A stretch of 33,303 nucleotides of DNA, from positions 1-33,303 of the forward strand of contig NZ_NCQY01000013.1 in assembly GCF_002894645.1 (NCBI RefSeq), in the 5' to 3' direction. The DNA is from Salinibacter altiplanensis (GTDB taxonomy: Bacteria > Bacteroidota > Rhodothermia > Rhodothermales > Salinibacteraceae). Numbering within the stretch: position 1 is the first letter of the stretch; each line of letters opens with the position of its first letter. Under the pieces are notes generated by a model, which worked only from the letters and a program-made list of their open reading frames with translations, did no database searches and had not been told where the DNA came from. The position numbers and the translations under genes were made by a program. Shown piece after piece: positions 6,396 to 20,590 of the stretch.

Positions 6396-6708
6396 CGGAG
6401 GGGCCCTAAGACGTCCCCGGCGCGATGTTGCGGCAGGAGAGAGTCCAGACGGGACCATGAGCTTTGAAAAACATGTCCCAGGGATGTAACGAGGCATTAC
6501 GAAACCATTATTCTGAAATTAAAGGTGTGCGAGACATAGCATCTTAAAGGAATGAGGGTGGCAAAAGTGAGAGGTGGCCTGTATCGTTTGAGTGGTTATC
6601 ACTCCAAGTCTAGTCTCCTGGTTGTCCTGGGCGATACAGGCAAAAGCCGTTTCGGATCACAGGACTAGCACCCCACTCATCTACGAACCACCAACCATTC
6701 CGTCCATC
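6396..6708. other. AT-richer upstream region of the TonB receptor gene
   Basis: This 313-base gap contains no credible gene. Around 6480-6560 the sequence is unusually A/T-rich for this window. A promoter-like pair and an overlapping palindrome lie at 6588-6616 and are listed separately. A long 5' untranslated leader of roughly 85 bases would result from that promoter. Confidence 0.4.
6588..6616 (+). promoter_or_regulatory. Candidate promoter with overlapping palindrome upstream of TonB receptor
   Basis: TTGAGT (6588-6593) and TAGTCT (6611-6616) are separated by 17 bases, a sigma70-like spacing with moderate matches. A perfect 5-base inverted repeat, GAGTG-GTTAT-CACTC (6590-6604), overlaps the -35 and spacer, where a repressor could sit. 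Whether the main sigma factor of this organism prefers such boxes is not known from the sequence. Confidence 0.3.
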
Positions 6709-9700
6709 ATGAAACGTTGGGCTACAATTTTCCCCTTGCTCTTACTCGTGGGGCTCCTTGCCTGGCCGCCTGCCGCTCACGGCCAAGGGGTCACCTCGGC
6801 CACCATTCGAGGTACCATTCTCGACGAGACAGAAGCCCCGCTCCCGGGTGCGAATGTCGTCGCGGTGCACGAGCCGAGCGGCTCACGCTACGGCTCGTCG
6901 ACTGGTGGAGATGGCCAGTTCACGATCGCGAACGTGCGCGTCGGCGGCCCCTACACCATCACCGCCTCATTCGTCGGCTACCAGTCGAAGCGTGAGACCG
7001 AGGTCCAGCTCGATCTCGGGGAGACGCGGACCTTTCGGTTCCAGCTCCGGCCCCAGACTGAGCAGCTGGACGAGGTGACGGTTGTCGGTGAACAGGGGGC
7101 TGTCTTCGACGAAAGTCGCAAGGGCCTCTCCACGAACATCTCGGAAGAAGAGGTGGAAACCGCCCCCACGATCGACCGGTCCATCGCGGACTTTGCGCGG
7201 TTTACGCCGCAGGCCATCGTTGGAAACGGCGACGATGACGGCTCGTCGATTTCCATTGCTGGCCAGAACAACCGGTACAACTCGATCTTCATCGACGGCG
7301 CGGTGAGCAACGACGTGTTCGGGCTCTCGGCCCAGGGCACCGACGGCGGCCAGACCGGAGCGACGCCGATTAGCACGGACGCCATCAAGAGCTTCAACAT
7401 TGAGGTATCGCCGTACGACGTGACGCAGAGCTACTTCGGCGGCGGTGCGATCAACGCTGTCACGCGGAGCGGGACGAACGAGTATGAGGGCTCGGTGGCC
7501 TTTGAGTACCGCGATCAGAACTTTGCGGAGGACCTGCCGGATGCCCCGTTTCCGGACTTCTCCAACGAGCGGTACGTGGGACGCTTCGGGGGCCCCATCG
7601 TCGAGGATGAGCTCTTCTTCTTTGTCAACTTCGACATCAACCGGGAGTCGTCGCCGCAGCCGTTCCAGAGCACCCTTGGGCCGGACGGTGACTTTCAGGG
7701 AACGGCGATCCAGACGGAGGAGGATGTAAACAACCTCGTCAGCTTTCTGGAGCAGACGGTTGGGGACCGGTACAATCCCGGCGGCTTCCGCGGGCAAGCC
7801 ACCACGCTTGACAGCGACAAGTTTCTGGGGAAGATCGACTGGAACATCAACCAGAATCATCGCCTGAGTGCCCGGTACAGCTACTCGAGCTCCGAGAATA
7901 TCGACGCCTTTGGTGGGGGCAACAGTGCACTGTCCTTCTCCAGCCGGAACGAGGTCTTTCCGAACACGACGCAGATTGGCGCGCTGGAGCTGAACAGCAC
8001 CTTTGGCAATGACTACGCCAACAAGCTGATTCTCAGCTACAAGGACGTCGAGGACGACCGGAATACGAATCTCCGCCAGCCTTTCCCGACCATCGACATC
8101 AACGATGGGGGGGCAGAGATTAGTCTTGGTGGTGAGCCGTTTTCGACGGTGAACTTCCTGAAGCAGGAAGTCTTCACCCTCACCAATGACTTTAACGTCT
8201 TCCTGGGGGACCACACCCTCACAGTCGGGACGCACAACGAGCTCTACGATCTGGCCAACCGGTTCGTCCCCTTCAACTACGGCTGGTACCAGTTCCCGAG
8301 CTTTCTGAATGGGGACAATGGCACCTCGATGGACGAATTTGCGCAAACCCTGTGCGCGTCGTCTGGCGCGCAGGGAATCCCGGGCAGTGAGTTCTTCGAC
8401 TGTAGCCAGTATCCGAATGAGCCTGCGCCCAGCCTCTTTGCACGTGCCTTCTCCCTCGTGGACAATACAGCAGGGTCTGGGCAGTTCGAAGAGATTGTGG
8501 GCGACAACACGAGTGCAGAGGGCGCTTTCCGGGCCCTCAACACCAGCCTCTACGTGCAGGACGAGTGGACGGTGAGCGATCGTCTGACGGTGACCGGAGG
8601 CGTTCGGGTCGACGTGCCGGTCTACCTGGATGATCCGGCGTACGCCAACCGGGGCAACCCGGCCGTTCCGGATGATGCATCCCCGGAGCTGAACCCGCGC
8701 AACACCACGATTCCTGCCATTGAGGACTTCTACTCGATGAACGGAGCGCGACCTGGCGAGACGCCAGATCCAGTGCTGCACTGGGCACCGCGCTTCGGCT
8801 TCAACTTCGACGCATTTGGGGACGAACAGACCCAGATCCGAGGAGGGACCGGGGTCTTCACCAGCCGCCAGCCATTCGTCTGGCCCGGGGGCATGTACCT
8901 CAACAACGGGACCAACACCGGAAGCGTCGACTTCATCGTCGACAATGTCCCGTTTCGGTCGAATCCCGCCGAAAATGGACTGACGGTGGCCGACGTCTCG
9001 GACCGCGATCCGACGGACCTCATTCCGAGTGGGCGCCTGGAGATGTTCGAAGAGGACTACTTCAACCCGCGCTTCTGGCGGACCTCGCTCGGGGTGGACC
9101 AGGAGCTGCCGGGCGGCGTCGTGGGGACGTTTGAGGCACAGTACTCCAATACCCTCAAGAACGTCCTGATCACGAACGTGAACCTGCGTCCGGCCAACGA
9201 AACGCTGGATGGTCCGGACAATCGGCCCATTTGGGTGCCGGAGGAGTACGGTGCGGGGAACAGCGAATTTACGCAGGCCGGAGATCAGCGCATCGACACG
9301 CGGTACTCGAACATCCACCGCGTGGGCAATACGGACCGCGGGTACTCCTACAACGTGACGGCCCGCCTCCGGAAGACCTTTGAGGGCGTCGTGACCGAAA
9401 ACAGCGGCCTTCGAACCGATGTGTCGTACACGTACGGCGATGCGTTCTCCGTGAACGACGGCACCTCCTCTCAGATCAACTCGCTCTGGGACGGCGTGGA
9501 GCACGTGAACGGAGCCAACAACCTTGAGCTGGCCCGGTCGGACTTCTCGACAGGCCACCGGGTGCTGGGGCGATTCTCGTACCGCCAGCAGCTTGGGGAC
9601 CGTTTCGCTCTTACGACGACCCTGATCTACGATGGGCAGTCCGGACGGCCGTTCTCCTACGTTATCGGTGGCAGCGAGAATATGGTGCAGGAACGAGGCG

Positions 9701-10275
9701 AAGAAAACTCCCTGTTCTACGTGCCCCAGACGGCCAGTCGGCTCGAGTTCTCGGAGATTGATCGAGACAACAGCTCGACCATCACCGCTGCGCAACAGGC
9801 CGCGGCGGTCGATCAGTTCATTCGAGAGAATGACTATCTGAGCCAGAAGCGGGGCGAGTACACCTCGCGAAACGCCGACCGGTCGCCATGGGAGGGAGTC
9901 ATGGACCTCAACCTCCGCCTCGAAATCTTCCAGGAGCTACTGGGACGCCAGCAGAGTGTGGAGCTTACGGCGAACGTGTTTAACTTCTCCAGCCTGCTGG
10001 GGGATGTGTTCGGCACGGATTGGGGCGAGCGCTACGCCGGGCTCAATCAGGTGAATCTGACGTCCTTCGATGAGTTTCGGGATCCGGACAACGGCGATTA
10101 CACGCCGGTCTACACGGCGCAAAGCGTGATCGACAGTGCGACGGATACCAACGGCGACGGTGTGGCCGATCAGATCCGCACGCTCGATCAAGACGACATC
10201 TTTGATGAGATCCGGACTGGATCCTCCTACAGCTCACAGTGGCAGATGAAGTTCGGCGTCCGTTACAACTTCTAA
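6709..10275 (+). CDS. Oar-like TonB-dependent outer membrane receptor with carboxypeptidase-regulatory-like N-terminal domain
   Basis: An 1188 aa outer membrane protein. The order is: signal peptide (1-27, MKRWATIFPLLLLVGLL then AHGQ); a CarboxypepD_reg-like beta-sandwich (about 30-115, TIRGTILDETEAPLPGANV and FTIANVRVGGPYTI); a TonB-box/plug region (about 120-260, LDEVTVVGE, SISIAGQNNRYNSIFIDGA, VSPYDVTQSYFGGGAINAVTRSGTNEYEG); and a long 22-strand-type barrel ending in MKFGVRYNF with the C-terminal aromatic residue typical of outer membrane proteins. A pair of cysteines about 17 residues apart (near residues 547-564) could form a disulfide in an extracellular loop. Two calcium-loop-like stretches occur near the end (residues 1018-1029 and 1146-1154). 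The pattern matches Oar/adhesion-type receptors; the ligand is unknown. The ATG at 6709 begins the signal peptide; an in-frame start at 6592 would add an unlikely extension. A strong terminator follows. Confidence 0.9.
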   Translation: MKRWATIFPLLLLVGLLAWPPAAHGQGVTSATIRGTILDETEAPLPGANVVAVHEPSGSRYGSSTGGDGQFTIANVRVGGPYTITASFVGYQSKRETEVQLDLGETRTFRFQLRPQTEQLDEVTVVGEQGAVFDESRKGLSTNISEEEVETAPTIDRSIADFARFTPQAIVGNGDDDGSSISIAGQNNRYNSIFIDGAVSNDVFGLSAQGTDGGQTGATPISTDAIKSFNIEVSPYDVTQSYFGGGAINAVTRSGTNEYEGSVAFEYRDQNFAEDLPDAPFPDFSNERYVGRFGGPIVEDELFFFVNFDINRESSPQPFQSTLGPDGDFQGTAIQTEEDVNNLVSFLEQTVGDRYNPGGFRGQATTLDSDKFLGKIDWNINQNHRLSARYSYSSSENIDAFGGGNSALSFSSRNEVFPNTTQIGALELNSTFGNDYANKLILSYKDVEDDRNTNLRQPFPTIDINDGGAEISLGGEPFSTVNFLKQEVFTLTNDFNVFLGDHTLTVGTHNELYDLANRFVPFNYGWYQFPSFLNGDNGTSMDEFAQTLCASSGAQGIPGSEFFDCSQYPNEPAPSLFARAFSLVDNTAGSGQFEEIVGDNTSAEGAFRALNTSLYVQDEWTVSDRLTVTGGVRVDVPVYLDDPAYANRGNPAVPDDASPELNPRNTTIPAIEDFYSMNGARPGETPDPVLHWAPRFGFNFDAFGDEQTQIRGGTGVFTSRQPFVWPGGMYLNNGTNTGSVDFIVDNVPFRSNPAENGLTVADVSDRDPTDLIPSGRLEMFEEDYFNPRFWRTSLGVDQELPGGVVGTFEAQYSNTLKNVLITNVNLRPANETLDGPDNRPIWVPEEYGAGNSEFTQAGDQRIDTRYSNIHRVGNTDRGYSYNVTARLRKTFEGVVTENSGLRTDVSYTYGDAFSVNDGTSSQINSLWDGVEHVNGANNLELARSDFSTGHRVLGRFSYRQQLGDRFALTTTLIYDGQSGRPFSYVIGGSENMVQERGEENSLFYVPQTASRLEFSEIDRDNSSTITAAQQAAAVDQFIRENDYLSQKRGEYTSRNADRSPWEGVMDLNLRLEIFQELLGRQQSVELTANVFNFSSLLGDVFGTDWGERYAGLNQVNLTSFDEFRDPDNGDYTPVYTAQSVIDSATDTNGDGVADQIRTLDQDDIFDEIRTGSSYSSQWQMKFGVRYNF

Positions 10276-10307
10276 CGGTGCCACAGCCACCGAACCCCTA
10301 GCATCTA

Positions 10308-10345
10308 CGGGCGGTCGTCGCGAGACGGCCGCCCGTTTTTATTTT
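10308..10345 (+). terminator. Strong intrinsic terminator of the TonB receptor gene
   Basis: CGGGCGGTCGTC (10308-10319) pairs with GACGGCCGCCCG (10324-10335) over a GCGA tetraloop, with one G-T wobble. TTTTTATTTT follows immediately. It lies 33 bases after the stop codon. Confidence 0.92.
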
Positions 10346-10516
10346 GTGCCTTCTCCGACCAGTCGTGCAATCTCCATCCAGAATAGCGTGCCTGAAGGAA
10401 AAGCGAACTCTCAGCCCCAATCCGTTGAGGATCTCTCCGGACACGGCACTGTTGGCTTCCGAAAACACCCCTATTGCGTGTGGTCTCTCGTTGTCTCATT
10501 CTCTTCAGCTTCCCTC

Positions 10517-11494
10517 ATGCTTCTTTGGACGTGTCGATTCGTCACCGTCGCTCTTCTCCTCCTGGGTGTGAACCCGATCGGTGCCGTGGCCCAATCGTCG
10601 GGGCTGGTCCCATCGCCAGAACCGTCGCTTGAGCGGGAGGGGCGTGTGGCCCACACTCCGGTGGATGAGATCAGCGGCATTGTCCGGAGCCGGTGGCAAG
10701 AGAACGTCTGGTGGGTCCACAACGACAGCGGCGACGCCCCGCGAATCTTCGCGATTGACAGCACTGGAAGTGTGCACATGGCCCCCTGGCACGCCGGCGA
10801 CCACGCCGTTGGGGCCGGGGCCGATAGCAGTGGGAAGCCGCCGTGGCCGGGCGTGCAGCTTGGGGCCGCCGCCCACATCGACTACGAGGACATCGCGGTA
10901 GAGGACAGCACGCTGTACCTCGGCGACATCGGCAACAACGGGAACGCCCGGCGCGACCTGGGCATCTACGTGCTGCGCGAGCCCTTCTACCACGACCGCC
11001 GAACCCGGCCTGTGAGGCATCTGCCCCTCCGGTACCCGGACCAGGAGACGGTTCCGGCGCAAGAATGGCATTTCGACGCGGAGAGCCTGTTCGTGGACGA
11101 CGGCACGCTCTATGTGCTCACCAAGCACCGAGAGGGACAACAGATCAATAGTCCCGAGCGAGGAACCAAGCTGTACCGGCTTGACACCGAGCACACCGAC
11201 CGCGTCAACACCCTCACGCTCGTGGACCATCATGACACCATCCCGCCGCCCACCGCCGCGGCCCTCAGTCCGAATGGGGAGCGACTGGCGGTGCTCTGCT
11301 TCGGCGGCGTGTGGATCTATGCCCGGCCCGAAGGGGGCGATCGGTGGCTCTCGTCGGAGCCGCGCCGCATCGACCTGCCCGATGAGCGAACGAAGCAGGC
11401 CGAGGCGGTGACGTGGGATGATCCGCACACGCTCCGCATCGCCAACGAGCAGAGAGATGTATTCGTATTGCCCCTCCAGACCGAACAGGAATAA
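10517..11494 (+). CDS. Secreted beta-propeller-like protein, function unknown
   Basis: A 325 aa exported protein. The signal peptide MLLWTCRFVTVALLLLGVNPIGAVAQ occupies residues 1-26. The mature part has repeated beta-blade-like segments: EISGIVRSRWQENVWWVHNDSG, RIFAIDSTGSV, IDYEDIAVEDSTLYLGDIGNN, SLFVDDGTLYVLTKH, KLYRLDTE, AAALSPNGERLAVLCFGGVWIYAR and AVTWDDPHTLRIANEQRDVFVLPL. This is the style of six- or seven-bladed propellers found in esterase-like/phytase-like secreted proteins. The HNDSGD and DYEDIA motifs recur in that group, but I see no proven active site. The long frame continues upstream to 10346, but that start would overlap the TonB-receptor terminator, and the ATG at 10517 begins the signal peptide. 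The leader is C/T-rich without a Shine-Dalgarno. It is probably transcribed separately from the receptor because the strong terminator lies between them. Confidence 0.75.
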   Translation: MLLWTCRFVTVALLLLGVNPIGAVAQSSGLVPSPEPSLEREGRVAHTPVDEISGIVRSRWQENVWWVHNDSGDAPRIFAIDSTGSVHMAPWHAGDHAVGAGADSSGKPPWPGVQLGAAAHIDYEDIAVEDSTLYLGDIGNNGNARRDLGIYVLREPFYHDRRTRPVRHLPLRYPDQETVPAQEWHFDAESLFVDDGTLYVLTKHREGQQINSPERGTKLYRLDTEHTDRVNTLTLVDHHDTIPPPTAAALSPNGERLAVLCFGGVWIYARPEGGDRWLSSEPRRIDLPDERTKQAEAVTWDDPHTLRIANEQRDVFVLPLQTEQE

Positions 11495-11888: not shown

Positions 11889-13388
11889 ATGGACCACTCC
11901 ACAACCGACGTTCTCGTCCTTGGCTCCGGCATCGCGGGCCTCTCCGCTGCTCTCGGGGCCGCCCGTGAGGGGGCCTCGGTCACTGTGGCCACGAAGGCGA
12001 CACAGCCCGAAGGGGCCTCCACGTGGTGGGCCCAGGGGGGCATCGCGGTGGCCCGTACGGCGCCCCGGCGGTTTAAGGAAGACATTCATACCGCGTCGAG
12101 TGGCACCAGCGACCCCGAGGCCCTCGACGTGCTCGTGCAGAACGCCGACGCGGCCGTGCGGGATGTGCTCATCGACACGCTCGAGGTGGACTTCGACACC
12201 GGAGGCGACGGCGCGTCGTTTGACTACGGACGCGAGGCGGCCCACTCCGAAGACCGCATTCTGCACGTTGACGCGTCGACGGGCAAGCACATCCACGAGC
12301 CGTTTCTAAACTGCCTCGCTGCCCACGACCGGGTCGCGATTCGGGGGAACACCGCCGCGATCGATCTGCTGGAGCGGGACGGAGCCGTCCACGGGGCGCT
12401 CCTCAAGTCCGGGGACGAGGTGCGGCGCCTCCACGCGGGGGCAACCGTCCTTGCCACCGGGGGCATCGGGGCCCTCTACGGCCGCTCCACGAATCCTGCG
12501 GGGGCGACGGGGGACGGCATCGCGATGGCGCACCGGGCCGGGGCCACGACGACCGACATGGAGTTCGTCCAGTTTCACCCCACCGTCTGCGTGGCCGATG
12601 GCGACCCATTCCTGGTGAGTGAGGCGGTACGAGGAGAGGGGGCGGTGCTCCGCAATGCCGCGGGCGACCGCTTCATGCCCGCCGTCCACGAGGACGCCGA
12701 GCTGGCGCCCCGCGACGTGGTGGCCCGTGCGGTAGAGCAGGAACACAAACGCACCGGACGGGTCGTGCTCGACGTCTCGTCGTTCGACTTCGCCGAGACC
12801 TTTCCGGACCTCACGGCGATGTGTGCAGAGCATGGGGTGGACCCGTCCGCCGGCATTCCCGTCGTGCCCGCTGAACACTTCCTCTGTGGCGGCGTCGACG
12901 TAGACACCCACGGGCGGGCGTCGCTTGATCGGCTCTACGCGGTGGGCGAGTGTGCCCGAACGGGGGTCCACGGCGCGAACCGGCTGGCCTCCACCTCGCT
13001 CCTGGAAGGGCTGGTGTGGGGCCTGCGGGCGGGAACCGATGCCACGGGGACCACGGTTCCCCCCCAACCCGTTTCGATCTCAACGACTGGTGCCGGATCG
13101 CCCCCGCCCGACGAAGCGCTCCGCGCGGCCTTCGAGCGCCTCCAGCAGGCCATGGACGAGCACGTGGGGCTTCGCCGCACGCCCGATGGCCTGCAACAGG
13201 CCCGCCACGACATCCGTTCGATTAGGGCGGACGTGGACGCCTGGATGGACCCCAGTGCCCGGCGCGGCGTCCACGAGCTCCGATCGGCCTGCACGGGAGC
13301 CCGCCTGATTGCCGAGGCGGCCGCGGCCAATGAGACGTCCGTGGGGTGCCACTACATGGAGCGGCCGGACGCCCCGTCGGCGTCCTGA
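11889..13388 (+). CDS. nadB: L-aspartate oxidase
   Basis: A cytoplasmic FAD flavoprotein of 499 aa that oxidises L-aspartate to iminoaspartate, the first step of de novo NAD synthesis. Seen here are the dinucleotide-binding motif VLVLGSGIAGLSAALGA (residues ~8-24), the family signature STWWAQGGIAVA, the flavin/substrate segment GATGDGIAMAHRAGA followed by MEFVQFHPT, the active-site loop HFLCGGVDVDTHGRAS, and YAVGECARTGVHGANRLASTSLLEGLVWG near the FAD end. The C-terminal helical domain is shorter than in the E. coli enzyme. Length is close to the usual 500-540 aa. Its place immediately before nadC and nadA on the same strand confirms the role against succinate dehydrogenase flavoprotein, its nearest look-alike. 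The ATG at 11889 lies just before the FAD strand and has a pyrimidine-rich leader. Confidence 0.95.
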   Translation: MDHSTTDVLVLGSGIAGLSAALGAAREGASVTVATKATQPEGASTWWAQGGIAVARTAPRRFKEDIHTASSGTSDPEALDVLVQNADAAVRDVLIDTLEVDFDTGGDGASFDYGREAAHSEDRILHVDASTGKHIHEPFLNCLAAHDRVAIRGNTAAIDLLERDGAVHGALLKSGDEVRRLHAGATVLATGGIGALYGRSTNPAGATGDGIAMAHRAGATTTDMEFVQFHPTVCVADGDPFLVSEAVRGEGAVLRNAAGDRFMPAVHEDAELAPRDVVARAVEQEHKRTGRVVLDVSSFDFAETFPDLTAMCAEHGVDPSAGIPVVPAEHFLCGGVDVDTHGRASLDRLYAVGECARTGVHGANRLASTSLLEGLVWGLRAGTDATGTTVPPQPVSISTTGAGSPPPDEALRAAFERLQQAMDEHVGLRRTPDGLQQARHDIRSIRADVDAWMDPSARRGVHELRSACTGARLIAEAAAANETSVGCHYMERPDAPSAS

Positions 13389-13540
13389 TCGCTCCTCCCC
13401 GAAGCTGTTTGGGGCCCGATGCCTGGCCAAACCCTGTAAGGACAAAGGGCCCTGCGCGCAGCAAGGAACCCCCGAGGGGGGCGCGGGCGGGCTGCCCGCT
13501 CGCTTTTCATGCACTGCACGAACGCTCGACCCCGCACACA

Positions 13541-14473
13541 GTGACCGAACCGACGTCCGTTGCGTCGCCCCGAGACCGGGCCCGACGCGCACTGCCAGAG
13601 TTCCTCCGCCGCCCCTCCGTGCTCTCTTTGCTGTCCCTGAGCATCGCAGAGGACGTGGATGCCGACGGGGCATGGCAATCGGGAAAGACGGCGCCGTCTG
13701 ACCGCGACGTCACGAGTGCGGCCACGCTGAAGACCGACGCCCAACTGCACGGCCGGCTCGTGGCGAAAGAAGAAGGCGTGGTTGCGGGCCTGCCGCTGGC
13801 CGACGCACTGTGTCGGCTCGTGGACCCGGAGCTCCGGGTTGCCCCGTCGGTGGAAGAGGGGGAACGGGTCGAGGCCGGACACCTTCTTGCGACGGTGGAG
13901 GGGCCCGGTCGAGCCCTCCTTACCGCCGAGCGTCCGGCGATTAATTTCGTCGGCCGCCTGTCCGGCGTCGCCACCCTCACCCGTCGCTTCGTGGACGCCA
14001 TCTCGCACACGAAGGCCGACATCCTGGACACCCGCAAGACGCTTCCGGGGCACCGTCGCCCCGATAAGTATGCGGTACGGCAGGGCGGCGGCCAGAACCA
14101 CCGGATGGGGCTCTACGACATGATCCTCATCAAAGACAACCACATTGACGGGGCCGGCGGCATTGCCGAGGCGGTGCGGCGTGTCCGGGAAACCCATGGG
14201 GACACGTATCCGATCGAGGTCGAGGTGAAAACCCTCGACGAACTCGAAGAGGCGCTCTCCCTCGCGCCCGACCATCTCCTGCTCGACAACATGTCTCCCG
14301 AAACACTCCGCCGGGCAGTGGATCACACGGACGGACGCGTTCCCTTGGAGGCCTCCGGCGGGGTGACGCTCAAGACGGTTTCAACCGTCGCGGAAACGGG
14401 CGTCGATGCCGTCTCTGTGGGGGCCCTCACGCATTCGCCCAAGACGCTCGACATCAGCATGCGAATCGACTGA
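13541..14473 (+). CDS. nadC: Nicotinate-nucleotide pyrophosphorylase (quinolinate phosphoribosyltransferase)
   Basis: It converts quinolinate and PRPP to nicotinate mononucleotide, CO2 and pyrophosphate. Visible motifs are DRDVTSAATL, EGVVAGLPLA, ERPAINFVGRLSGVATLTRRFV, ILDTRKTLPGHRRPDKYAVRQGGGQNHR (product- and PRPP-contacting residues; written here as pieces of one conserved block), DMILIKDNHI, EVEVKTLDELEEAL, LLLDNMSPE and ASGGV. The start is uncertain. The frame is open from 13346, but a start there would overlap nadB and give 375 aa, too long for the family. The only sensible start between is a GTG at 13541, giving 310 aa, still slightly long at the N-terminus. The nadB-nadC gap holds two GC-rich inverted repeats (about 13469-13480 and 13483-13499), which might be an attenuating or processing structure. 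It is the middle gene of nadB-nadC-nadA. Confidence 0.92.
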   Translation: MTEPTSVASPRDRARRALPEFLRRPSVLSLLSLSIAEDVDADGAWQSGKTAPSDRDVTSAATLKTDAQLHGRLVAKEEGVVAGLPLADALCRLVDPELRVAPSVEEGERVEAGHLLATVEGPGRALLTAERPAINFVGRLSGVATLTRRFVDAISHTKADILDTRKTLPGHRRPDKYAVRQGGGQNHRMGLYDMILIKDNHIDGAGGIAEAVRRVRETHGDTYPIEVEVKTLDELEEALSLAPDHLLLDNMSPETLRRAVDHTDGRVPLEASGGVTLKTVSTVAETGVDAVSVGALTHSPKTLDISMRID

Positions 14474-14529
14474 GACGGGTGCCCGGTGCCCGCGTCCGAG
14501 CCATCAACCAACCACTCTAGCTTGCTGCC

Positions 14530-15627
14530 ATGATCAACGACGCTGCGACCCTGACCGACCCCGATGCGCTCTATGACGTGCTTGCGGAGCGCCTCGAAGA
14601 CCGGCCCAGTGACCGAGAGCTCCGCCACAAGGCCGAGATGGCCGCCGAGATTAACGCGCTCAAGCAGGAGCAAGACGCGGTCATCCTCGGCCACAACTAC
14701 ATGGAGCCGGCGCTCTTCCATACGATCCCGGACTACACCGGGTCGTCGCTGGAGCTGAGCCGGCGTGCCGCCGAGGCGGAGGCGGACACGATTGTATTCT
14801 GTGGGGTGCGGTTCATGGCCGAGACGGCCAAGATCGTGAACCCGAACAAGACGGTGCTCCTGCCCGCGGAGGAGGCGGGCTGTTCGCTCGCCGAGAGCAT
14901 TACGGCGGAGGACGTGCGGCGCCTCAGGGAGCGCTATCCGGGGCTGCCGGTCGTCACGTATGTCAACACCTACGCCGACGTGAAGGCCGAGAGCGACGTC
15001 TGCTGCACCTCCAGCAACGCGGCGCAGGTCGTGGAGTCGCTCGACTCGGACACCGTCATCTTCATCCCGGACGAGTTCCTGGCCCAGAACGTGGCGCAGG
15101 AGACCGGCAAGGATGTGCTCTTTCCCCAGAAGCGAGAGCGGAAGGACGTTGGGGGCGACGGCGCGCCGACGAGCGGCGACGGGGCCCCGGCCGAGGCCGC
15201 CGACGCCGACATGATCGGGTGGGAGGGACGCTGCGTGGTGCACGACATGTTTCAGGTGGAGGATGTGCAGCAGGCCCGCGAGGAGCACCCCGACACGGTG
15301 GTGCTGGCCCACCCCGAGTGCAGCCCGGAGGTCGTGGAAGAGGCCGACCACTCCGGCAGCACCTCCTCGATGATCGACTACGTCGAGAACACCAACGCGG
15401 AGAGCTACCTATTGCTCACGGAGTGCTCGATGGGGGACAACATCATGGGGGCCAATCCAGACAAGAACCTGCTGCGGATGTGCTGGCAGCGGTGCCCGCA
15501 CATGAACCAGATCACGCTGGAGGACACCTACCGAAACCTCGCGAACGACCAGTACCAGATCGAGATTGAGGAAGAGGTGCGCTTGGGGGCCCTGGAGGCC
15601 GTCGAGCGGATGCTCGAAATCGGGTAA
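14530..15627 (+). CDS. nadA: Quinolinate synthase
   Basis: A cytoplasmic [4Fe-4S] enzyme of 365 aa that condenses iminoaspartate with dihydroxyacetone phosphate to give quinolinate. Conserved blocks seen are ILGHNYMEPALFHTIPDYTGSS (shown in part; substrate pocket), IVFCGVRFMAETAKI, PNKTVLLPAEEAGCSLA, VVTYVNTYADVKAESDVCCTSSNA, the active-site HPEC motif (261-264), LLLTECSMGDN and CWQRCPHMNQITLED. By spacing to HPE, the three cluster ligands are C118, C235 and C322. Between about residues 205 and 229, just before the second ligand, there is a Gly/Ala/Asp-rich insertion (KDVGGDGAPTSGDGAP and on) that looks like a flexible loop. The start at ATG 14530 gives a normal N-terminus. It is separated from nadC by 56 bases, and the three genes together form a full aspartate-to-NaMN pathway. 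Confidence 0.95.
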   Translation: MINDAATLTDPDALYDVLAERLEDRPSDRELRHKAEMAAEINALKQEQDAVILGHNYMEPALFHTIPDYTGSSLELSRRAAEAEADTIVFCGVRFMAETAKIVNPNKTVLLPAEEAGCSLAESITAEDVRRLRERYPGLPVVTYVNTYADVKAESDVCCTSSNAAQVVESLDSDTVIFIPDEFLAQNVAQETGKDVLFPQKRERKDVGGDGAPTSGDGAPAEAADADMIGWEGRCVVHDMFQVEDVQQAREEHPDTVVLAHPECSPEVVEEADHSGSTSSMIDYVENTNAESYLLLTECSMGDNIMGANPDKNLLRMCWQRCPHMNQITLEDTYRNLANDQYQIEIEEEVRLGALEAVERMLEIG

Positions 15628-15955: not shown

Positions 15956-17299
15956 CTACTTCGTCAGCCCCGGATTCCGGTTTAGGAACTCGTCGTACAG
16001 CTTCGTGGCCCGGTTTTCGAGCGGCAGCTTGTACCCGTCGATGAAGAGGTGCTGCACGTCGGTCGCGGGCTGAAGTGGATCGCCGTTGGCGACGAAGAGG
16101 TTGGCCCGCTTGCCGGCCTCGATGGTCCCTACCTGGTCCGCGACGCCAAAGATGCGCGCCGGGTTTGTGGTAATGGCCCGGAGGGCCTCCGTCTTGCCGA
16201 GGCCGTGGGCGGCGGCGAAGCCCGCGTGAAAGACGAGGTTGCGTACGTTCTCGGTCTTGCCGGAGCGAAGCGCCACGGTGACCCCTGCGTCATGAAGCAG
16301 GGCGGGCGTGCGGTAGGCCTTGTCGTAGCGGTCGCTCTCCCGACTTGGGGGCTGCATGATGGAGCCGACCAGCACCGGCACGTCGGCCGTCGCGATCTCG
16401 TCGGCGACGCGCCATCCTTCGAGGGCCCCACTGAGAATCACCTGGTCGAGCACGCCGCGCTCCTCCGCCCAGTCGAGGGCCGTGGAAATGTCGGCCGCCG
16501 CGTTGGCGGAGATCATGAGGGGCTGCTCCCCCCGGATGACGGGCAGCAGTCCCTCCATGGCGGGCACGAACTCGGGCTGACGCCGCGCCTCCGGCTGCTC
16601 CGCCACCGCCGAATCGATCCGGGCGTACCGCTTGGCCTCTGACCACAATTCATTGAGCTTGCTGAGGGCCTTCTCCGCCTCCGTCTGGATCGTCTCGGGC
16701 GACCGGTCGTCCGAGGGCCCCTGGCGGCCCACGGACGGGAAGTTCAGCTTCGTGAGCGTCACGTCGCCCAGGTGCATCTGCTCAGGGGTGTAGCCGTGGA
16801 GCCCAATGAGGGCGGAGGTCCCGGGCAGAATTCCGTTCTCCGGCTCTGTGATCACGGAGGTGATCCCGTGGACGCGCGTCGTGGGCACGTGCACGGTGCT
16901 GGGGTTCACGGCCGCGAGGGCATTCATGTGGGCCGTGAGGTTGCCAACCTCGTTGAAGTCCTGTGTCTCCGGAAGCGAGCCGATCTCCGCGAGGCCGAGG
17001 TGCGTGCCGCTGTCAATGAACCCCGGATACACCCGCTGGCCCGAAAGGTCGAACGCCTGGGCGTCGGACGGCACCGATACGTCCGGGCCCACGGCGGCGA
17101 TCGAGTCGCCCTGGACAACAACGGTGCCGCGGTCGAGGGTATCACCGGGCGCGACGATCACCTGGGCATTCGTCAGGGCAAACGGCCCCTGGTAGCCGGG
17201 CTGCTTCTGGGCGTGGGCGGGCAGGGTCAACAGGAGGGCAACGAGCAGGGTCAGCCCCGCGGAGACGCTCAGCGGCCGCGGGCGAGAGGGAGAGAGCAT
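15956..17299 (-). CDS. Exported amidohydrolase-family protein, first metal-ligand histidine missing (third gene of triad)
   Basis: A 447 aa protein with a cleavable signal peptide (about 1-30, ending AHAQ) that places it in the periplasm. The fold is the composite beta-sandwich/TIM barrel of imidazolonepropionase-like amidohydrolases: ALTNAQVIVAPGDTLDRGTVVVQGDSIAAVG at the start, PGFIDSGTHLGL where the metal motif belongs, and TTNPARIFGVADQVGTIEAGKRANLFVANGDPL at the end. The usual H-x-H of the first barrel strand reads G-T-H (98-100), so one metal ligand is gone. No clear second pair of histidines is seen either. It may be non-catalytic or use a different mechanism. The ATG at 17299 is chosen over a TTG two codons upstream. 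It is the last gene of a three-gene operon, 46 bases after the middle gene. Confidence 0.82.
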   Translation of the reverse strand: MLSPSRPRPLSVSAGLTLLVALLLTLPAHAQKQPGYQGPFALTNAQVIVAPGDTLDRGTVVVQGDSIAAVGPDVSVPSDAQAFDLSGQRVYPGFIDSGTHLGLAEIGSLPETQDFNEVGNLTAHMNALAAVNPSTVHVPTTRVHGITSVITEPENGILPGTSALIGLHGYTPEQMHLGDVTLTKLNFPSVGRQGPSDDRSPETIQTEAEKALSKLNELWSEAKRYARIDSAVAEQPEARRQPEFVPAMEGLLPVIRGEQPLMISANAAADISTALDWAEERGVLDQVILSGALEGWRVADEIATADVPVLVGSIMQPPSRESDRYDKAYRTPALLHDAGVTVALRSGKTENVRNLVFHAGFAAAHGLGKTEALRAITTNPARIFGVADQVGTIEAGKRANLFVANGDPLQPATDVQHLFIDGYKLPLENRATKLYDEFLNRNPGLTK

Positions 17300-17345
17300 G
17301 AGCAAACGGATTGGTCAGCAGGCGGTCGGAGAGGCAGAGGGGGGC

Positions 17346-18773
17346 TTATCGGCCCGTATTTTCGAGGGTTACGCCGTTTTTGGTGGCGCGCAGCTGGGTG
17401 ACGCCCTTCAGGCAACTGTGGGCGGCGTGGCGACTCCAGCCGTCGCGGGCGAGGGCCACGGTGCCCTCGGGGTCCACGCGGAGCCGCATGTCGTCGGGGT
17501 CCTGTTCGTGGTCGAAGCGCACGACCCCGTCGACGTAGGTCCGTTGCGGTTTGGTGTAGACGGACAGCGGGTGCTCGCTAAAGATCGCGAGGTCGGCGGC
17601 CTTGCCTTCTTCGATCGACCCCACGCGGTCGGCGATGCCGAGTTGGCGGGCGGGATTGAGGGTGATGAGCCTGAGGGCCTGGGTGGCGGAGAGGTCGCCA
17701 TACCGTTGTGTCTTGGCGGCCTGGAGGTAGAGATCCCGCTGCTCCCCCGGAATGTCGGAGTTGATGGACGCGTTGACGCCGTTCTCGGTGAGGACGGCGG
17801 CGTTGTAGGCGGTGGAGTAGTACACCTCAAACTTGTACGACCACCAGTCCGAAAAGACCGTCGCACCGGCGCCGTTGTCCCCGAAGGCGGCCAGTTCAGG
17901 GGCAATCTTGAAGCCCTCGTTCGCGTGGTGGAAGACGAGGTCCTGAATGCCGAAGTCTTCGAAGACGTCCATGAGCATGAGCATCTCGTCGGCGCGGTAG
18001 CCGTGGGTCTGCACGAGAATGTCGCCCCGGAGGACCCCTGCGAGGACCTCCATGCGCTCGCTGTGCGCGGGCGGCCGGGCCCGATCTCCACTTTGGTAGG
18101 CCTGCTTCGCCTCCGTGTAGCGCTGTGCCTTGGTGAGGGCCGTCCGGATGACTTGTTCTACGCCCATCCGGGTGCGGGGCACCTGATCGCGTCCCTGGCC
18201 ATACAGCCCCGTCGGGTTCTCCCCGAGGGCAAACTTGATTGTCCGGGGCGCGTCGTCCATCTGCAGGCGGTCGGGGTTCGTGACGCCGTAGCGCAGCTTG
18301 ATCGTCTCGTTGCGGCCGCCGATGGGGTTGGCCGAGCCGTGCATCACGTGGGCGGTTGTCACACCTCCGGCCAGCGCGCGGTAGATGCCGACGTCGTAGG
18401 GGGTGAGCACATCGCCCACCCCCACTTCGGCGGTGACGGGGTTGGTGGCCTCGTTGACGTTGCTGATGGCCATGTGCTGGTGGGCCTCCACGATGCCCGG
18501 CATCACGTACTCGCCGCTGGCGTCGTACGTCTCGACGCCGCTCGGGGCCGACAGGTCTCGTCCAACCTGGGCGATGTCGCCGTCGCGCACGAGGATGTCG
18601 CCGTTCTCGATGGTGCCGTCCGTGACGGTCAGTACGGTGGCGTCCTGAATAAGCCAGTCATCGGGGGCGTCGCCGCGCAGCTGGTCCTGGGCCTGCAGGG
18701 GCGTGGCGACCAGGAGGGCGGCGGTAAGGACGCCGAGGGCGAAGCAAAAGCGGGAGGGAAAAGCAGAGAGCAT
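17346..18773 (-). CDS. Exported amidohydrolase with intact metal site (second gene of triad)
   Basis: A 475 aa protein with signal peptide MLSAFPSRFCFALGVLTAALLVATPLQAQ (residues 1-29, quoted in part as the hydrophobic core ALGVLTAALLVA). The amidohydrolase core follows: LIQDATVLTVTDGTIENGDILVRDG, MPGIVEAHQHMAI with the H-x-H metal pair (H98, H100), H257 in ILVQTHGY, H282/H283 in LVFHHANEG, and an aspartate (D340) in SINSDIPGE. The end has LITLNPARQLGIADRVGSIEEGKAADLAIFSEHPL. Metal ligands are therefore present, and it is the likely active member of the triad. Such proteins act on cyclic amides or dipeptide-like substrates; the substrate here is unknown. The ATG at 18773 starts the signal peptide; the longer frame upstream is discarded. 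It sits 77 bases after the first gene and 46 before the third. Confidence 0.85.
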   Translation of the reverse strand: MLSAFPSRFCFALGVLTAALLVATPLQAQDQLRGDAPDDWLIQDATVLTVTDGTIENGDILVRDGDIAQVGRDLSAPSGVETYDASGEYVMPGIVEAHQHMAISNVNEATNPVTAEVGVGDVLTPYDVGIYRALAGGVTTAHVMHGSANPIGGRNETIKLRYGVTNPDRLQMDDAPRTIKFALGENPTGLYGQGRDQVPRTRMGVEQVIRTALTKAQRYTEAKQAYQSGDRARPPAHSERMEVLAGVLRGDILVQTHGYRADEMLMLMDVFEDFGIQDLVFHHANEGFKIAPELAAFGDNGAGATVFSDWWSYKFEVYYSTAYNAAVLTENGVNASINSDIPGEQRDLYLQAAKTQRYGDLSATQALRLITLNPARQLGIADRVGSIEEGKAADLAIFSEHPLSVYTKPQRTYVDGVVRFDHEQDPDDMRLRVDPEGTVALARDGWSRHAAHSCLKGVTQLRATKNGVTLENTGR

Positions 18774-18850
18774 AAGGGATTGGGAAGACGGAACGCAAAA
18801 TATCGTCAGAGGGGGCGCGCGGAATTTACCGCGGGGCGTGCGGGTGGACA

Positions 18851-20590
18851 CTACTTCTGAGTCGCATTGGGGCTGCTGGTGCGCTCGCCGGAGATGGGAA
18901 ACGAGCCCCCGGACGTGGAGGCGGACCCGTCGAAGGTGTCGCCCTCGACCGTCACCGAGACGGAGACGGACCCGCCCTGCGGCGAGTCCACGGTGAACGA
19001 GAGGGTCGTGCCGTCGAACGACACCGACCGGAGCGGCTGTTCGTCGCCCTGTGGGCCGGTGAAGGTGCCGTCCAGGCCCGACGGGCCGCCCTCAATCGTG
19101 ACCTCGCCGGAGAGGTCTCCCTGCGGGGTTTCGAGCGTGTACGACCACGTGCCGAGGACCGCGGACACGTCGCCGCTCACCTCGCCTGTGTCGCCGCCGT
19201 CCGAGCTGTAGTCGTAGAGCCGGCCGTCCACGAACACGTGCTGGACGGACGTGCCTTCGCCGAAGTAGGGCCCGTCGGTCACGACGAGATTCGCAATCTT
19301 CCCTTCCTCGACGGTGCCCAAACGGTTGTCCAGACCAAGCTGCGCGGCGGGGCGGGTCGTAAGGGCGGCGAGCGCCGTCTCCTCGGGGAGCCCCTGTTCG
19401 ATCATCGTGCGGAGGGTGCTGCGGACGTCGCCCGGGTCGGCCTCGCGGGTCGTAAAGCCGAACGTGAGGCCGGCCTCATGCAGGGTGGCCGCCGTTTTTA
19501 GGTAGGCCTGCCGCTCCATGGCGTGGCGGAGCTCCAGGTTCGCCTCCTCCTCGGCGACGGTCTCGTAGGACGGCGCCTTGAATTCGGGGCTGTAGTACTG
19601 GGAGGGGGCGCTCGTTGTATCGGCCATCGTGGTGTCCGGACCGCTCGACCGTGTCGGCTCCTCCGGCAGGTCCAGGGTCAGGAAGAAGGGCGCGTCGACC
19701 CCCTGGAGGGTGCTAACGAGTTCGTGGCCCTCCCCCAGTCCGGCCAGAACGAGCGGAAAGTCGAGCTCCTGATGCAGCGCAAGGATGCGGTGGAGGGACA
19801 GGGCCTCGTCGGCGTAGAAGGCGAGGGGCGTCTCGCCGTCCAGCACGGGGAAGAGTGCGCTGTGCTCCGGGTCCTGCGGGGGCTGGGAGCGCCCTGTCGG
19901 GTCGCGCTCGTAGGCGGCGTCGAGCTGCTGGCGGCGCTCCGCCTCGCGGAAGAGTTGCCGCATCTGCGCGATCACGGCCATGTCCGTGGCCGGGTACACG
20001 TAGCCGTTGGCCGTCTGGAGCTGGGCGAAGAGGGTGGGACTGGTCTCCAGCACCATGTCGTCGGCCGTCTCGCCCCCGTAAAAGACGTGGGCGCTGGCAC
20101 CGGGGAGCATCTGTCCCTCGGGGGCGACGTGGCCGAGGGTGAACCCGGCTTCCCGCAGCGACTTCAGGTCCGACTCCTCGGGGGAGAGGAACGGCCGGAC
20201 GGACCGATCCGGTTGAATGCCCGCCGCATCAGGCGGAGGATTGCCGGGGTCCTCGACATCCTCGTCCTCGGTGTCCGGCATCTCGACCCCCGCGTGGGAG
20301 AAGCCGTCGATGAAGCCGGCGTAGACCACGAGGGAGTCGGCCTCGATCGTACGGGCATCGTACGGCACCTCAGCGTCGTCCCCCACGGCCTCGATCACGC
20401 CGTCCCGGACCACGACCGTGGCCGATTCGAGGACCTGCCCGGGGGCCTGCACAACGCGGGCATTCTGAAGGGCATACGTGTCGGTGACCGTCGGCACCTC
20501 GTAGTCTTGGGCACAGAGACGAGACGGCAGAACCAGCAGGACGAGACCAAGAAGGCCAAGTCCGTAGCGGCGAAATGTCGAAGCAGTCAT
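18851..20590 (-). CDS. Exported amidohydrolase-family protein with C-terminal beta-domain, metal motif degenerate (first gene of triad)
   Basis: A 579 aa protein. The signal peptide (about 1-28) is followed by an amidohydrolase core: YALQNARVVQAPGQVLESATVVVRDGVIEAVG, then AGFIDGFSHAGV where the metal H-x-H should be. The first His is Phe (F97-S98-H99). The TIM-barrel end is recognisable as AALTTRPAAQLGLDNRLGTVEEGKIANLVVTDGPY. After a Gly/Asp-rich linker near residue 485, the last ~95 residues form a beta-rich domain with repeated G-W-S-Y-T-L-E-T-P-Q-G and GTFTGPQG-type strands. This domain is commonly fused to exported amidohydrolases in Bacteroidota and resembles a small lipocalin-like barrel. 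The protein carries a large acidic insertion after the metal motif (DTEDEDVEDPGN), as expected for a halophile. The ATG at 20590 begins the signal peptide. Confidence 0.82.
   Translation of the reverse strand: MTASTFRRYGLGLLGLVLLVLPSRLCAQDYEVPTVTDTYALQNARVVQAPGQVLESATVVVRDGVIEAVGDDAEVPYDARTIEADSLVVYAGFIDGFSHAGVEMPDTEDEDVEDPGNPPPDAAGIQPDRSVRPFLSPEESDLKSLREAGFTLGHVAPEGQMLPGASAHVFYGGETADDMVLETSPTLFAQLQTANGYVYPATDMAVIAQMRQLFREAERRQQLDAAYERDPTGRSQPPQDPEHSALFPVLDGETPLAFYADEALSLHRILALHQELDFPLVLAGLGEGHELVSTLQGVDAPFFLTLDLPEEPTRSSGPDTTMADTTSAPSQYYSPEFKAPSYETVAEEEANLELRHAMERQAYLKTAATLHEAGLTFGFTTREADPGDVRSTLRTMIEQGLPEETALAALTTRPAAQLGLDNRLGTVEEGKIANLVVTDGPYFGEGTSVQHVFVDGRLYDYSSDGGDTGEVSGDVSAVLGTWSYTLETPQGDLSGEVTIEGGPSGLDGTFTGPQGDEQPLRSVSFDGTTLSFTVDSPQGGSVSVSVTVEGDTFDGSASTSGGSFPISGERTSSPNATQK

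What the first reader, a model, noticed from the sequence alone, without database searches (positions are those of the whole stretch)
15956..20590. Operon of three exported amidohydrolases in which only the middle one keeps its metal site
Three adjacent minus-strand genes encode signal-peptide-bearing imidazolonepropionase-like proteins. The middle has H-Q-H, two more His sites and the Asp. The outer two have G-T-H and F-S-H in place of H-x-H. The same loss in both flanking paralogues suggests functional specialisation, such as a complex of one catalytic and two structural or binding subunits, not random decay.
Basis: partly seen in the sequence, partly recalled or inferred. Interest (0 to 1): 0.55.

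Follow-up and report, generated by a model that had tools for sequence, protein, structure and literature searches.

The report
One working enzyme, two disabled partners
Many bacteria carry a trio of related exported enzyme-like proteins of which only one kept its metal-binding catalytic site, and the way the three are inherited, fused and kept together suggests that they form one multi-part enzyme whose two disabled copies are permanent partners.

Summary
Genes A (18851-20590), B (17346-18773) and C (15956-17299) encode three paralogues of one amidohydrolase family whose closest solved relative is 3OOQ. B keeps all six metal ligands (HxH, Lys, His, His, Asp); A of the window keeps one of these letters and C two. 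Over 130 related loci B keeps 6 of 6 in 130; A (125) and C (122) never keep more than 2. Separate genes in the order A-B-C stand in 62 of 80 named loci; elsewhere they are fused as A-B, B-C or A-B-C. Among 118 genomes of the phylum, B and C occur in the same 65, including some where C lies at another locus. A second pair (D active, E inactive) shows the same split in the same 30 of 118. Against one near relative A and C are under purifying selection. Best reading: an exported heteromeric metallo-hydrolase with one catalytic and two pseudoenzyme subunits, in arrangement like metformin hydrolase. The loss in A and C was probably inherited from one inactive ancestor (support 84-87), not made twice. 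Physical assembly and substrate are untested; the predicted A-B fusion model does not fix how its domains pack.

The parts
18851..20590 (-). gene A: exported pseudo-amidohydrolase, 579 aa, with a beta-rich C-terminal extension; F-S-H in place of H-x-H, 1 of 6 ligand letters kept
17346..18773 (-). gene B: exported catalytic subunit, 475 aa from the ATG; full ligand set H124, H126, K206, H283, H309, D366 (numbers of the 501-aa frame that starts at 18851)
15956..17299 (-). gene C: exported pseudo-amidohydrolase, 447 aa; G-T-H in place of H-x-H, 2 of 6 ligand letters kept; intact fold predicted (pLDDT 91, pTM 0.88; Z 46.8 to 3OOQ)
18474..18482 (-). codons of H124-Q125-H126 in B (H-x-H motif)
18234..18236 (-). 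codon of K206 in B (IKFALGEN motif; candidate carboxylated bridging lysine, role recalled)
18003..18005 (-). codon of H283 in B
17925..17927 (-). codon of H309 in B
17754..17756 (-). codon of D366 in B
18854..19192 (-). C-terminal extension of A; no Pfam family above its cut-off; a beta-rich stretch stands between the A and B barrels in the modelled A-B fusion of L153

Best explanation
A, B and C are the three subunits of one exported (periplasmic or surface) heteromeric metallo-hydrolase. B is the only catalytic subunit: a two-metal site made of HxH, a (probably carboxylated) lysine, two further histidines and an aspartate hydrolyses an amide or peptide bond (roles of these residues recalled from the superfamily). 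A and C are pseudoenzymes of the same fold that lost the site long ago and serve as obligate partners of B, holding its quaternary structure and probably shaping the entrance or specificity of its active site. Shown here: ligand pattern, gene order, fusions, co-occurrence, low dN/dS against one relative, intact predicted fold of C. Inferred: export (N-termini read by eye), physical association, about 1:1:1 stoichiometry (from the all-in-one fusions), role of the inactive subunits. Weakly inferred: substrate class (small peptides or N-acyl amino acids).
For: Ligands: B 130 of 130 keep 6 of 6; A of 125 keep 0 (93), 1 (26) or 2 (6); C of 122 keep 0 (90), 1 (28) or 2 (4); H-x-H check without the joint alignment. 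Separate genes A, B, C in that order in 62 of 80 named loci, all 62 on one strand, median gaps 2 and 10 bases on longest-frame starts. Fusions: A-B in 10 of 80, B-C in 4, A-B-C in 2; A-B also in 19 of 50 loci of the phylum sample. B and C in the same 65 of 118 genomes; C present but unlinked in 8 of the 21 A-B genomes and in both Armatimonadota genomes. D and E in the same 30 of 118. dN/dS against L097: A 0.155, B 0.089, C 0.093. Structure: C model Z 46.8 to 3OOQ; the A-B fusion model also finds 3OOQ first, aligned at 21% and, for another chain, 34% identity.
Against: No direct evidence of contact: the A-B fusion model has pTM 0.65 from 10 sequences and pLDDT under 50 in loops next to B's ligands. 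Correlated divergence (B-C 0.93, A-B 0.84) is expected from shared ancestry alone, and genomes of one phylum are not independent. One genome, G007, has a frame of about 2530 aa with A-like and partial B-like parts and no C. C is unlinked in 8 genomes (2 on the same contig far away, 6 on other contigs of draft assemblies), so co-transcription is not required. No gene neighbour is general enough to name a pathway. Export was not confirmed by the crude test over the loci.
Confidence: 0.77

Rival explanations
1. A and C are substrate- or ligand-binding proteins that work with B in the same compartment without forming a stable complex (the pseudo-active pocket binds, B cuts).
For: C has its own strongly conserved polar residues (E107 98%, D116 99%, E119 95%, R144 100%, R355 95%, numbers of the 449-aa frame), more than pure scaffolding strictly needs. 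C is unlinked from A-B in 8 genomes.
Against: Covalent fusion in three arrangements, including all three in one chain, is easier to explain by a complex. A has few conserved polar residues, which does not fit a binding pocket.
Confidence: 0.13
2. A and C are still enzymes with another, metal-poor or rebuilt active site (for example an acidic cation site in the E107/D116/E119 loop of C).
For: Conserved acidic loop and Arg in C; E has a similar conserved loop. C of this window still has H126 and a Lys in the K206 column.
Against: No His or Cys conserved at 90% or more in A or C; A has no Asp or Glu at that level either. The Lys of the window's C is shared by only 2 of 122 C proteins. B's N133-E134 lie in the same loop, so its conservation may be ancestral and structural.
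Confidence: 0.07
3. A and C act as exported folding helpers or temporary inhibitors of B and not as permanent subunits.
For: They are paralogues made together with B; no call tests this directly.
Against: Permanent fusions A-B, B-C and A-B-C fit a temporary role poorly.
Confidence: 0.02
4. A and C are decaying duplicates kept only by chance linkage.
For: Faster divergence than B (median pairwise identity over 117 loci: A 0.29, C 0.38, B 0.49).
Against: Long open frames at great distance, dN/dS 0.09-0.16 against L097, 11 phylum labels, B-C co-occurrence even when unlinked.
Confidence: 0.01

Closest known systems
3OOQ, amidohydrolase from Thermotoga maritima (no paper holding the code 3OOQ in the library searched)
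   Same: Best solved match for all three proteins (E 9e-62 B, 3e-32 C, 3.5e-11 A); C model Z 46.8 over 378 residues; keeps the B-type ligands in the alignment.
   Different: Solved as ten chains of one sequence; whether its genome has inactive partners was not tested here.
Metformin hydrolase MefH (ureohydrolase family; PMC11399263, abstract and passages seen)
   Same: Tandem paralogous genes; only the alpha subunit keeps the metal ligands; activity only as a heteromer; each heterotrimer holds one active and two inactive subunits.
   Different: Another superfamily; the inactive chains are one gene used twice; recently evolved by its title; nickel enzyme. Here there are two different inactive paralogues, apparently exported, old and widespread, and fused in three ways.
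Pseudomonas aeruginosa ATCase-pseudo-dihydroorotase complex (PMC7053772, abstract and section list seen)
   Same: An inactive dihydroorotase homologue (amidohydrolase superfamily, recalled) is a necessary subunit of an enzyme.
   Different: There the inactive chain supports an unrelated enzyme (ATCase); here it accompanies its own active paralogue.
Prolidases and arginine/lysine carboxypeptidases of the amidohydrolase superfamily (3N2C, 3FEQ, 3MTW, 3MKV, 3BE7)
   Same: Among the next structural neighbours of the C model (Z 24-26) and of the A-B fusion model.
   Different: Far behind 3OOQ and tied within about one Z unit with other amidohydrolases, such as an isopropylammelide hydrolase (6NBO) and adenosine deaminases; no evidence that B has their specificity.

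Membership tests
Amidohydrolase superfamily (Pfam PF01979) | Whole-protein score above the curated cut-off (25 bits) | tested here: met
   A 48.4, B 63.2, C 44.5 bits
Amidohydrolase superfamily, catalytic member, applied to B | Complete metal ligand set HxH, Lys, His, His, Asp (role of these residues recalled) | tested here: met
   130 of 130 B
Amidohydrolase superfamily, catalytic member, applied to A and C | The same complete ligand set | tested here: not met
   0 of 125 A and 0 of 122 C keep more than 2 of 6; A of the window keeps 1, C keeps 2
Imidazolonepropionase HutI (TIGR01224) | Score above the curated cut-off of 298.15 bits | tested here: not met
   A 35.0, B 52.1, C 48.8 bits
Xaa-Pro dipeptidase (NF051886) | Score above the curated cut-off of 500 bits | tested here: not met
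   A 36.5, B 46.5, C 55.8 bits
Enzymes built of active and inactive paralogous subunits (MefH-like arrangement) | Adjacent paralogous genes of which only one keeps the metal ligands | tested here: met
Enzymes built of active and inactive paralogous subunits (MefH-like arrangement) | Physical heteromer required for activity | not testable with these tools
   Only indirect: fusions and co-occurrence
3OOQ-like family | Sequence closest to 3OOQ among solved chains, and fold far closer to 3OOQ than to the next chain (tested on C of the window) | tested here: met
   Sequence for A, B and C. Fold of C: Z 46.8 against 26.1 for the next entry. A and B halves of the L153 fusion: 3OOQ first

The most novel reading that the evidence does not exclude
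A pseudo-symmetric exported enzyme of three different barrels, old and spread over records of 11 phylum labels, in which one barrel cuts and the two disabled barrels bind or measure the substrate. The active/inactive pairing would predate the split between the B-C and D-E systems, and the inactive gene would later have duplicated to A and C, so that an enzyme built on a dead copy of itself has been inherited as a unit and fused repeatedly.
Probability: 0.3. Interest if true: 0.75.

Novelty: new variant of a known kind. Interest (0 to 1): 0.6.

Why it matters
The cases that I know of in which an enzyme needs an inactive twin are single systems, such as metformin hydrolase. Here is an old, widespread exported system, not described in the papers that I could search, with two different inactive paralogues per active enzyme, a sister system with one, and natural fusions that join each inactive partner to the active one. 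It offers a natural series for asking why a cell keeps dead copies of an enzyme. It also warns that a family search labels all three proteins as amidohydrolases although two of them lack the site.

Tried and rejected
Random decay of A and C: rejected (dN/dS, open frames, co-occurrence).

HutI or Xaa-Pro dipeptidase identity: rejected by curated cut-offs.

A pathway from gene neighbours: led nowhere general. One cluster, an M28-like exported peptidase (my reading of its sequence; no family search was run on it), stood near 15 loci, on the same strand in 15 of 15 and downstream in 14; of the 14 loci printed, 10 carry Cyclobacteriaceae-type names. An AAA ATPase gene lies upstream on the same strand in 11 loci, the window among them. 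Clusters there are single-linkage and some are mixed.

Folding natural fusions to see the interface: the A-B fusion of L153 (10 rows) gave pLDDT 74 and pTM 0.65, not enough to fix domain packing. A B-C fusion job was not run: when single C genes were added, their low identity to the first row (24-28%) indicated that they had aligned to the B half, and the six-row set looked too thin, so the second job went to C of the window.

A crude signal-peptide test over the loci was not decisive because frames were taken from the first possible start: A 48 of 67, B 44 of 64, C 46 of 71, against 162 of 395 other frames. That the three are exported rests on reading the window's N-termini.

Promoter and terminator scan: one promoter-like match upstream of A (20664-20636; 1 found against 0.4 expected), no terminator on the operon strand; not used.

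Papers: the ten searches run (open-licence PMC only) listed no paper on this trio by title or abstract start; most listings were read as listings only. One BAM paper listed was searched for the word amidohydrolase and does not hold it.

Fold searches: no family is excluded.

Full report
WHAT IS THERE. The window is G000:C7:1-33303 of a 3.6-Mb assembly. Three minus-strand genes follow one another: A, ATG at 20590, stop at 18851 (579 aa); B, ATG at 18773 to 17346 (475 aa; a GTG frame of 501 aa starts at 18851 and its numbers are used for residues); C, ATG at 17299 to 15956 (447 aa; residue numbers below are those of the 449-aa frame from the TTG at 17305). The gaps are 77 and 46 bases. Each N-terminus reads as a signal peptide by eye. 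All three exceed the Pfam cut-off for PF01979 (A 48.4, B 63.2, C 44.5 against 25 bits) and are paralogues of each other: A-C 28%, B-C 29%, A-B 24% identity. The best solved relative of all three is 3OOQ, an amidohydrolase of Thermotoga maritima: E 9e-62 for B, 3e-32 for C, 3.5e-11 for A. They are not imidazolonepropionases by the curated model (35-52 bits against 298).

THE METAL SITE. Aligned with B, the ligand columns are H124, H126, K206, H283, H309 and D366. Their role as ligands is recalled knowledge of the superfamily; their conservation is measured. In the window, A reads F, H, F, Y, G, R and C reads G, H, K, S, G, G in these columns. In 130 loci B keeps all six in 130 of 130. Of 125 A proteins, 93 keep none, 26 one and 6 two. 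Of 122 C proteins, 90 keep none, 28 one and 4 two, the window's C among the four (50 loci from the phylum search and 80 from the named collection). A and C are only 24-29% identical to B, so single columns depend on the alignment. A check without it, looking for H-x-H close behind the first barrel strand, finds it in 125 of 130 B (4 had no strand match), 10 of 10 D, 0 of 125 A, 1 of 122 C and 0 of 10 E. The 80 named loci were found with patterns that include the KFALGEN and HGSAN motifs of B, so conservation of K206, E211 and N212 is favoured there; in the 50 phylum loci, found by plain homology, it is also 50 of 50. H309 has become Gly in 115 of 122 C and 83 of 125 A. B has 113 columns conserved at 90% or more, C 46 and A 21. 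Neither A nor C has a His or Cys at that level. C has its own conserved polar set (E107, D116, E119, R144, R355), for which I have no tested role.

ORDER, FUSION, CO-OCCURRENCE. Of the 50 loci of the phylum sample, 31 have A, B and C as separate adjacent genes, and 19 have A and B fused in one frame of about 1000 aa, A half first; C is adjacent in 15 of the 19. The split does not follow kinship strictly: some genomes of the window's class are fused and some of other classes are not. In 80 named loci (the best 80 of at least 590, so not a full census): 62 A|B|C, 8 A-B|C, 2 A-B with C not nearby, 2 A|B-C, 2 B-C|A, 2 A-B-C in one chain, and 2 cut by contig ends (L099, L108). The 62 separate trios, some with A cut by a contig end, are all on one strand. 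The named loci bear 11 phylum labels: Bacteroidota, Balneolota, Ignavibacteriota, Acidobacteriota, Gemmatimonadota, Planctomycetota, Armatimonadota, Pseudomonadota (Idiomarina, Pseudidiomarina), Krumholzibacteriota, Zixiibacteriota and one MAG labelled Actinomycetota; two records have no phylum (labels of metagenome bins are not checked). In 118 genomes of the phylum, B (best E below 1e-80) is in 65 and C (E below 1e-90) in 65; compared by hand they are the same 65. The thresholds were set after seeing the gap between true B or C and cross-matches. Where C is not next to A-B it is still present: of 21 genomes with A-B matches tested, 20 have C, in 8 of them unlinked (G043 and G059 far away on one contig; G023, G027, G086, G101, G105 and G113 on other contigs of draft assemblies), and the two Armatimonadota genomes of L160 and L168 have it too. 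The exception is G007, with a frame of about 2530 aa holding an A-like part and a partial B-like part, and no C. Within one genus code (g30 of family f19) G057, G068 and G084 have both B and C, and G021 and G025 neither. Genomes of one phylum are related, so the counts are not independent events.

A SISTER SYSTEM. The same genome has a second pair at C29:569396-571964. D keeps all six ligands in 10 of 10 loci; its adjacent partner E keeps none (2) or one (8) of six. D and E occur in the same 30 of 118 genomes, five of which lack B and C (G001, G031, G066, G070, G079).

EVOLUTION. A, B, C, D and E each form one clade (SH-aLRT 99-100), and the unrooted tree separates B+D from A+C+E with 98. With three distant outgroup proteins the tree is ((B,D),(E,(A,C))), with 84 for B+D and 87 for A+C+E. 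The outgroup branches are very long, so the root is suggestive only. Against the near relative L097, dN/dS is 0.155 (A, 73% identical), 0.089 (B, 89%) and 0.093 (C, 85%) (one pair of genomes, simple Nei-Gojobori counts, dS 0.7-1.25, so rough). Over 117 loci pairwise identities correlate (B-C 0.93, A-B 0.84, A-C 0.83), which shared descent alone would also give.

STRUCTURE. C of the window, with 54 sequences in the alignment, folds with pLDDT 91 and pTM 0.88. Its best structural match is 3OOQ (Z 46.8, 378 residues, 2.9 A); the next entries lie at Z 24-26 and are mostly prolidases and arginine/lysine carboxypeptidases, nearly tied with other amidohydrolases. C is thus predicted to be an intact barrel without the site. 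The natural A-B fusion of L153 gave pLDDT 74 and pTM 0.65; Foldseek puts 3OOQ chains first, two aligned at 21% and one at 34% identity, as expected if the two halves match separately. The relative placement of A and B is not established, and no heteromer was modelled.

HOW IT PROBABLY WORKS. Inferred: B hydrolyses an amide or peptide bond outside the cytoplasm with two metals; A and C are permanent partner barrels. Fusion of each partner to B, and of all three in one chain, points to physical association and to about 1:1:1. Precedents show that such arrangements exist. In metformin hydrolase only the alpha subunits hold metal, each heterotrimer has two inactive subunits, and only the heteromer is active (PMC11399263, abstract and passages). 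In P. aeruginosa an inactive dihydroorotase homologue is necessary for ATCase activity (PMC7053772, abstract). The substrate is unknown; the peptide guess rests on structural neighbours and on an M28-like peptidase gene near some loci, and is weak.

NOVELTY. The kind (active plus inactive paralogous subunits) is known. This trio, its fusions, its spread and its sister pair did not appear in the listings of the ten searches of open-licence papers; subscription papers were not searched. I file it as a new variant of a known kind.

Noticed in passing
G000:C29:569396-571964 (L037: 8394-11061, minus strand): A second active/inactive amidohydrolase pair (D, E) with the same split; D and E occur in the same 30 of 118 phylum genomes.
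   Followed up: yes
L085:5977-13548 (G007): A single 2523-aa frame with an A-like part and a partial B-like part, in a genome without C; beyond the amidohydrolase matches Pfam finds nothing in it at E up to 1.
   Followed up: partly
window 16874-16987, minus strand (C residues 107-144 of the 449-aa frame): A conserved acidic loop (E107, D116, E119) and an invariant Arg 144 in C, a protein without the metal site.
   Followed up: partly
window 18854-19192, minus strand: C-terminal extension of A with no Pfam family above cut-off; a beta-rich stretch lies between the A and B barrels in the modelled A-B fusion.
   Followed up: partly
window 11889-15627, plus strand: NAD synthesis cluster next to the trio: FAD-binding oxidoreductase (position suggests NadB), quinolinate phosphoribosyltransferase, NadA.
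   Followed up: no
window 6592-11494, plus strand: Large outer-membrane beta-barrel protein with a carboxypeptidase-regulatory-like domain, followed by a frame with a phytase-like esterase match just below its cut-off.
   Followed up: no
G121 (genome of L141, Planctomycetota), contigs C87 and C121: Besides the trio's own contig C71, six further matches of the C profile (E below 1e-30) lie on two other contigs, so more members of the family seem to be present; which subfamilies they are was not determined.
   Followed up: no
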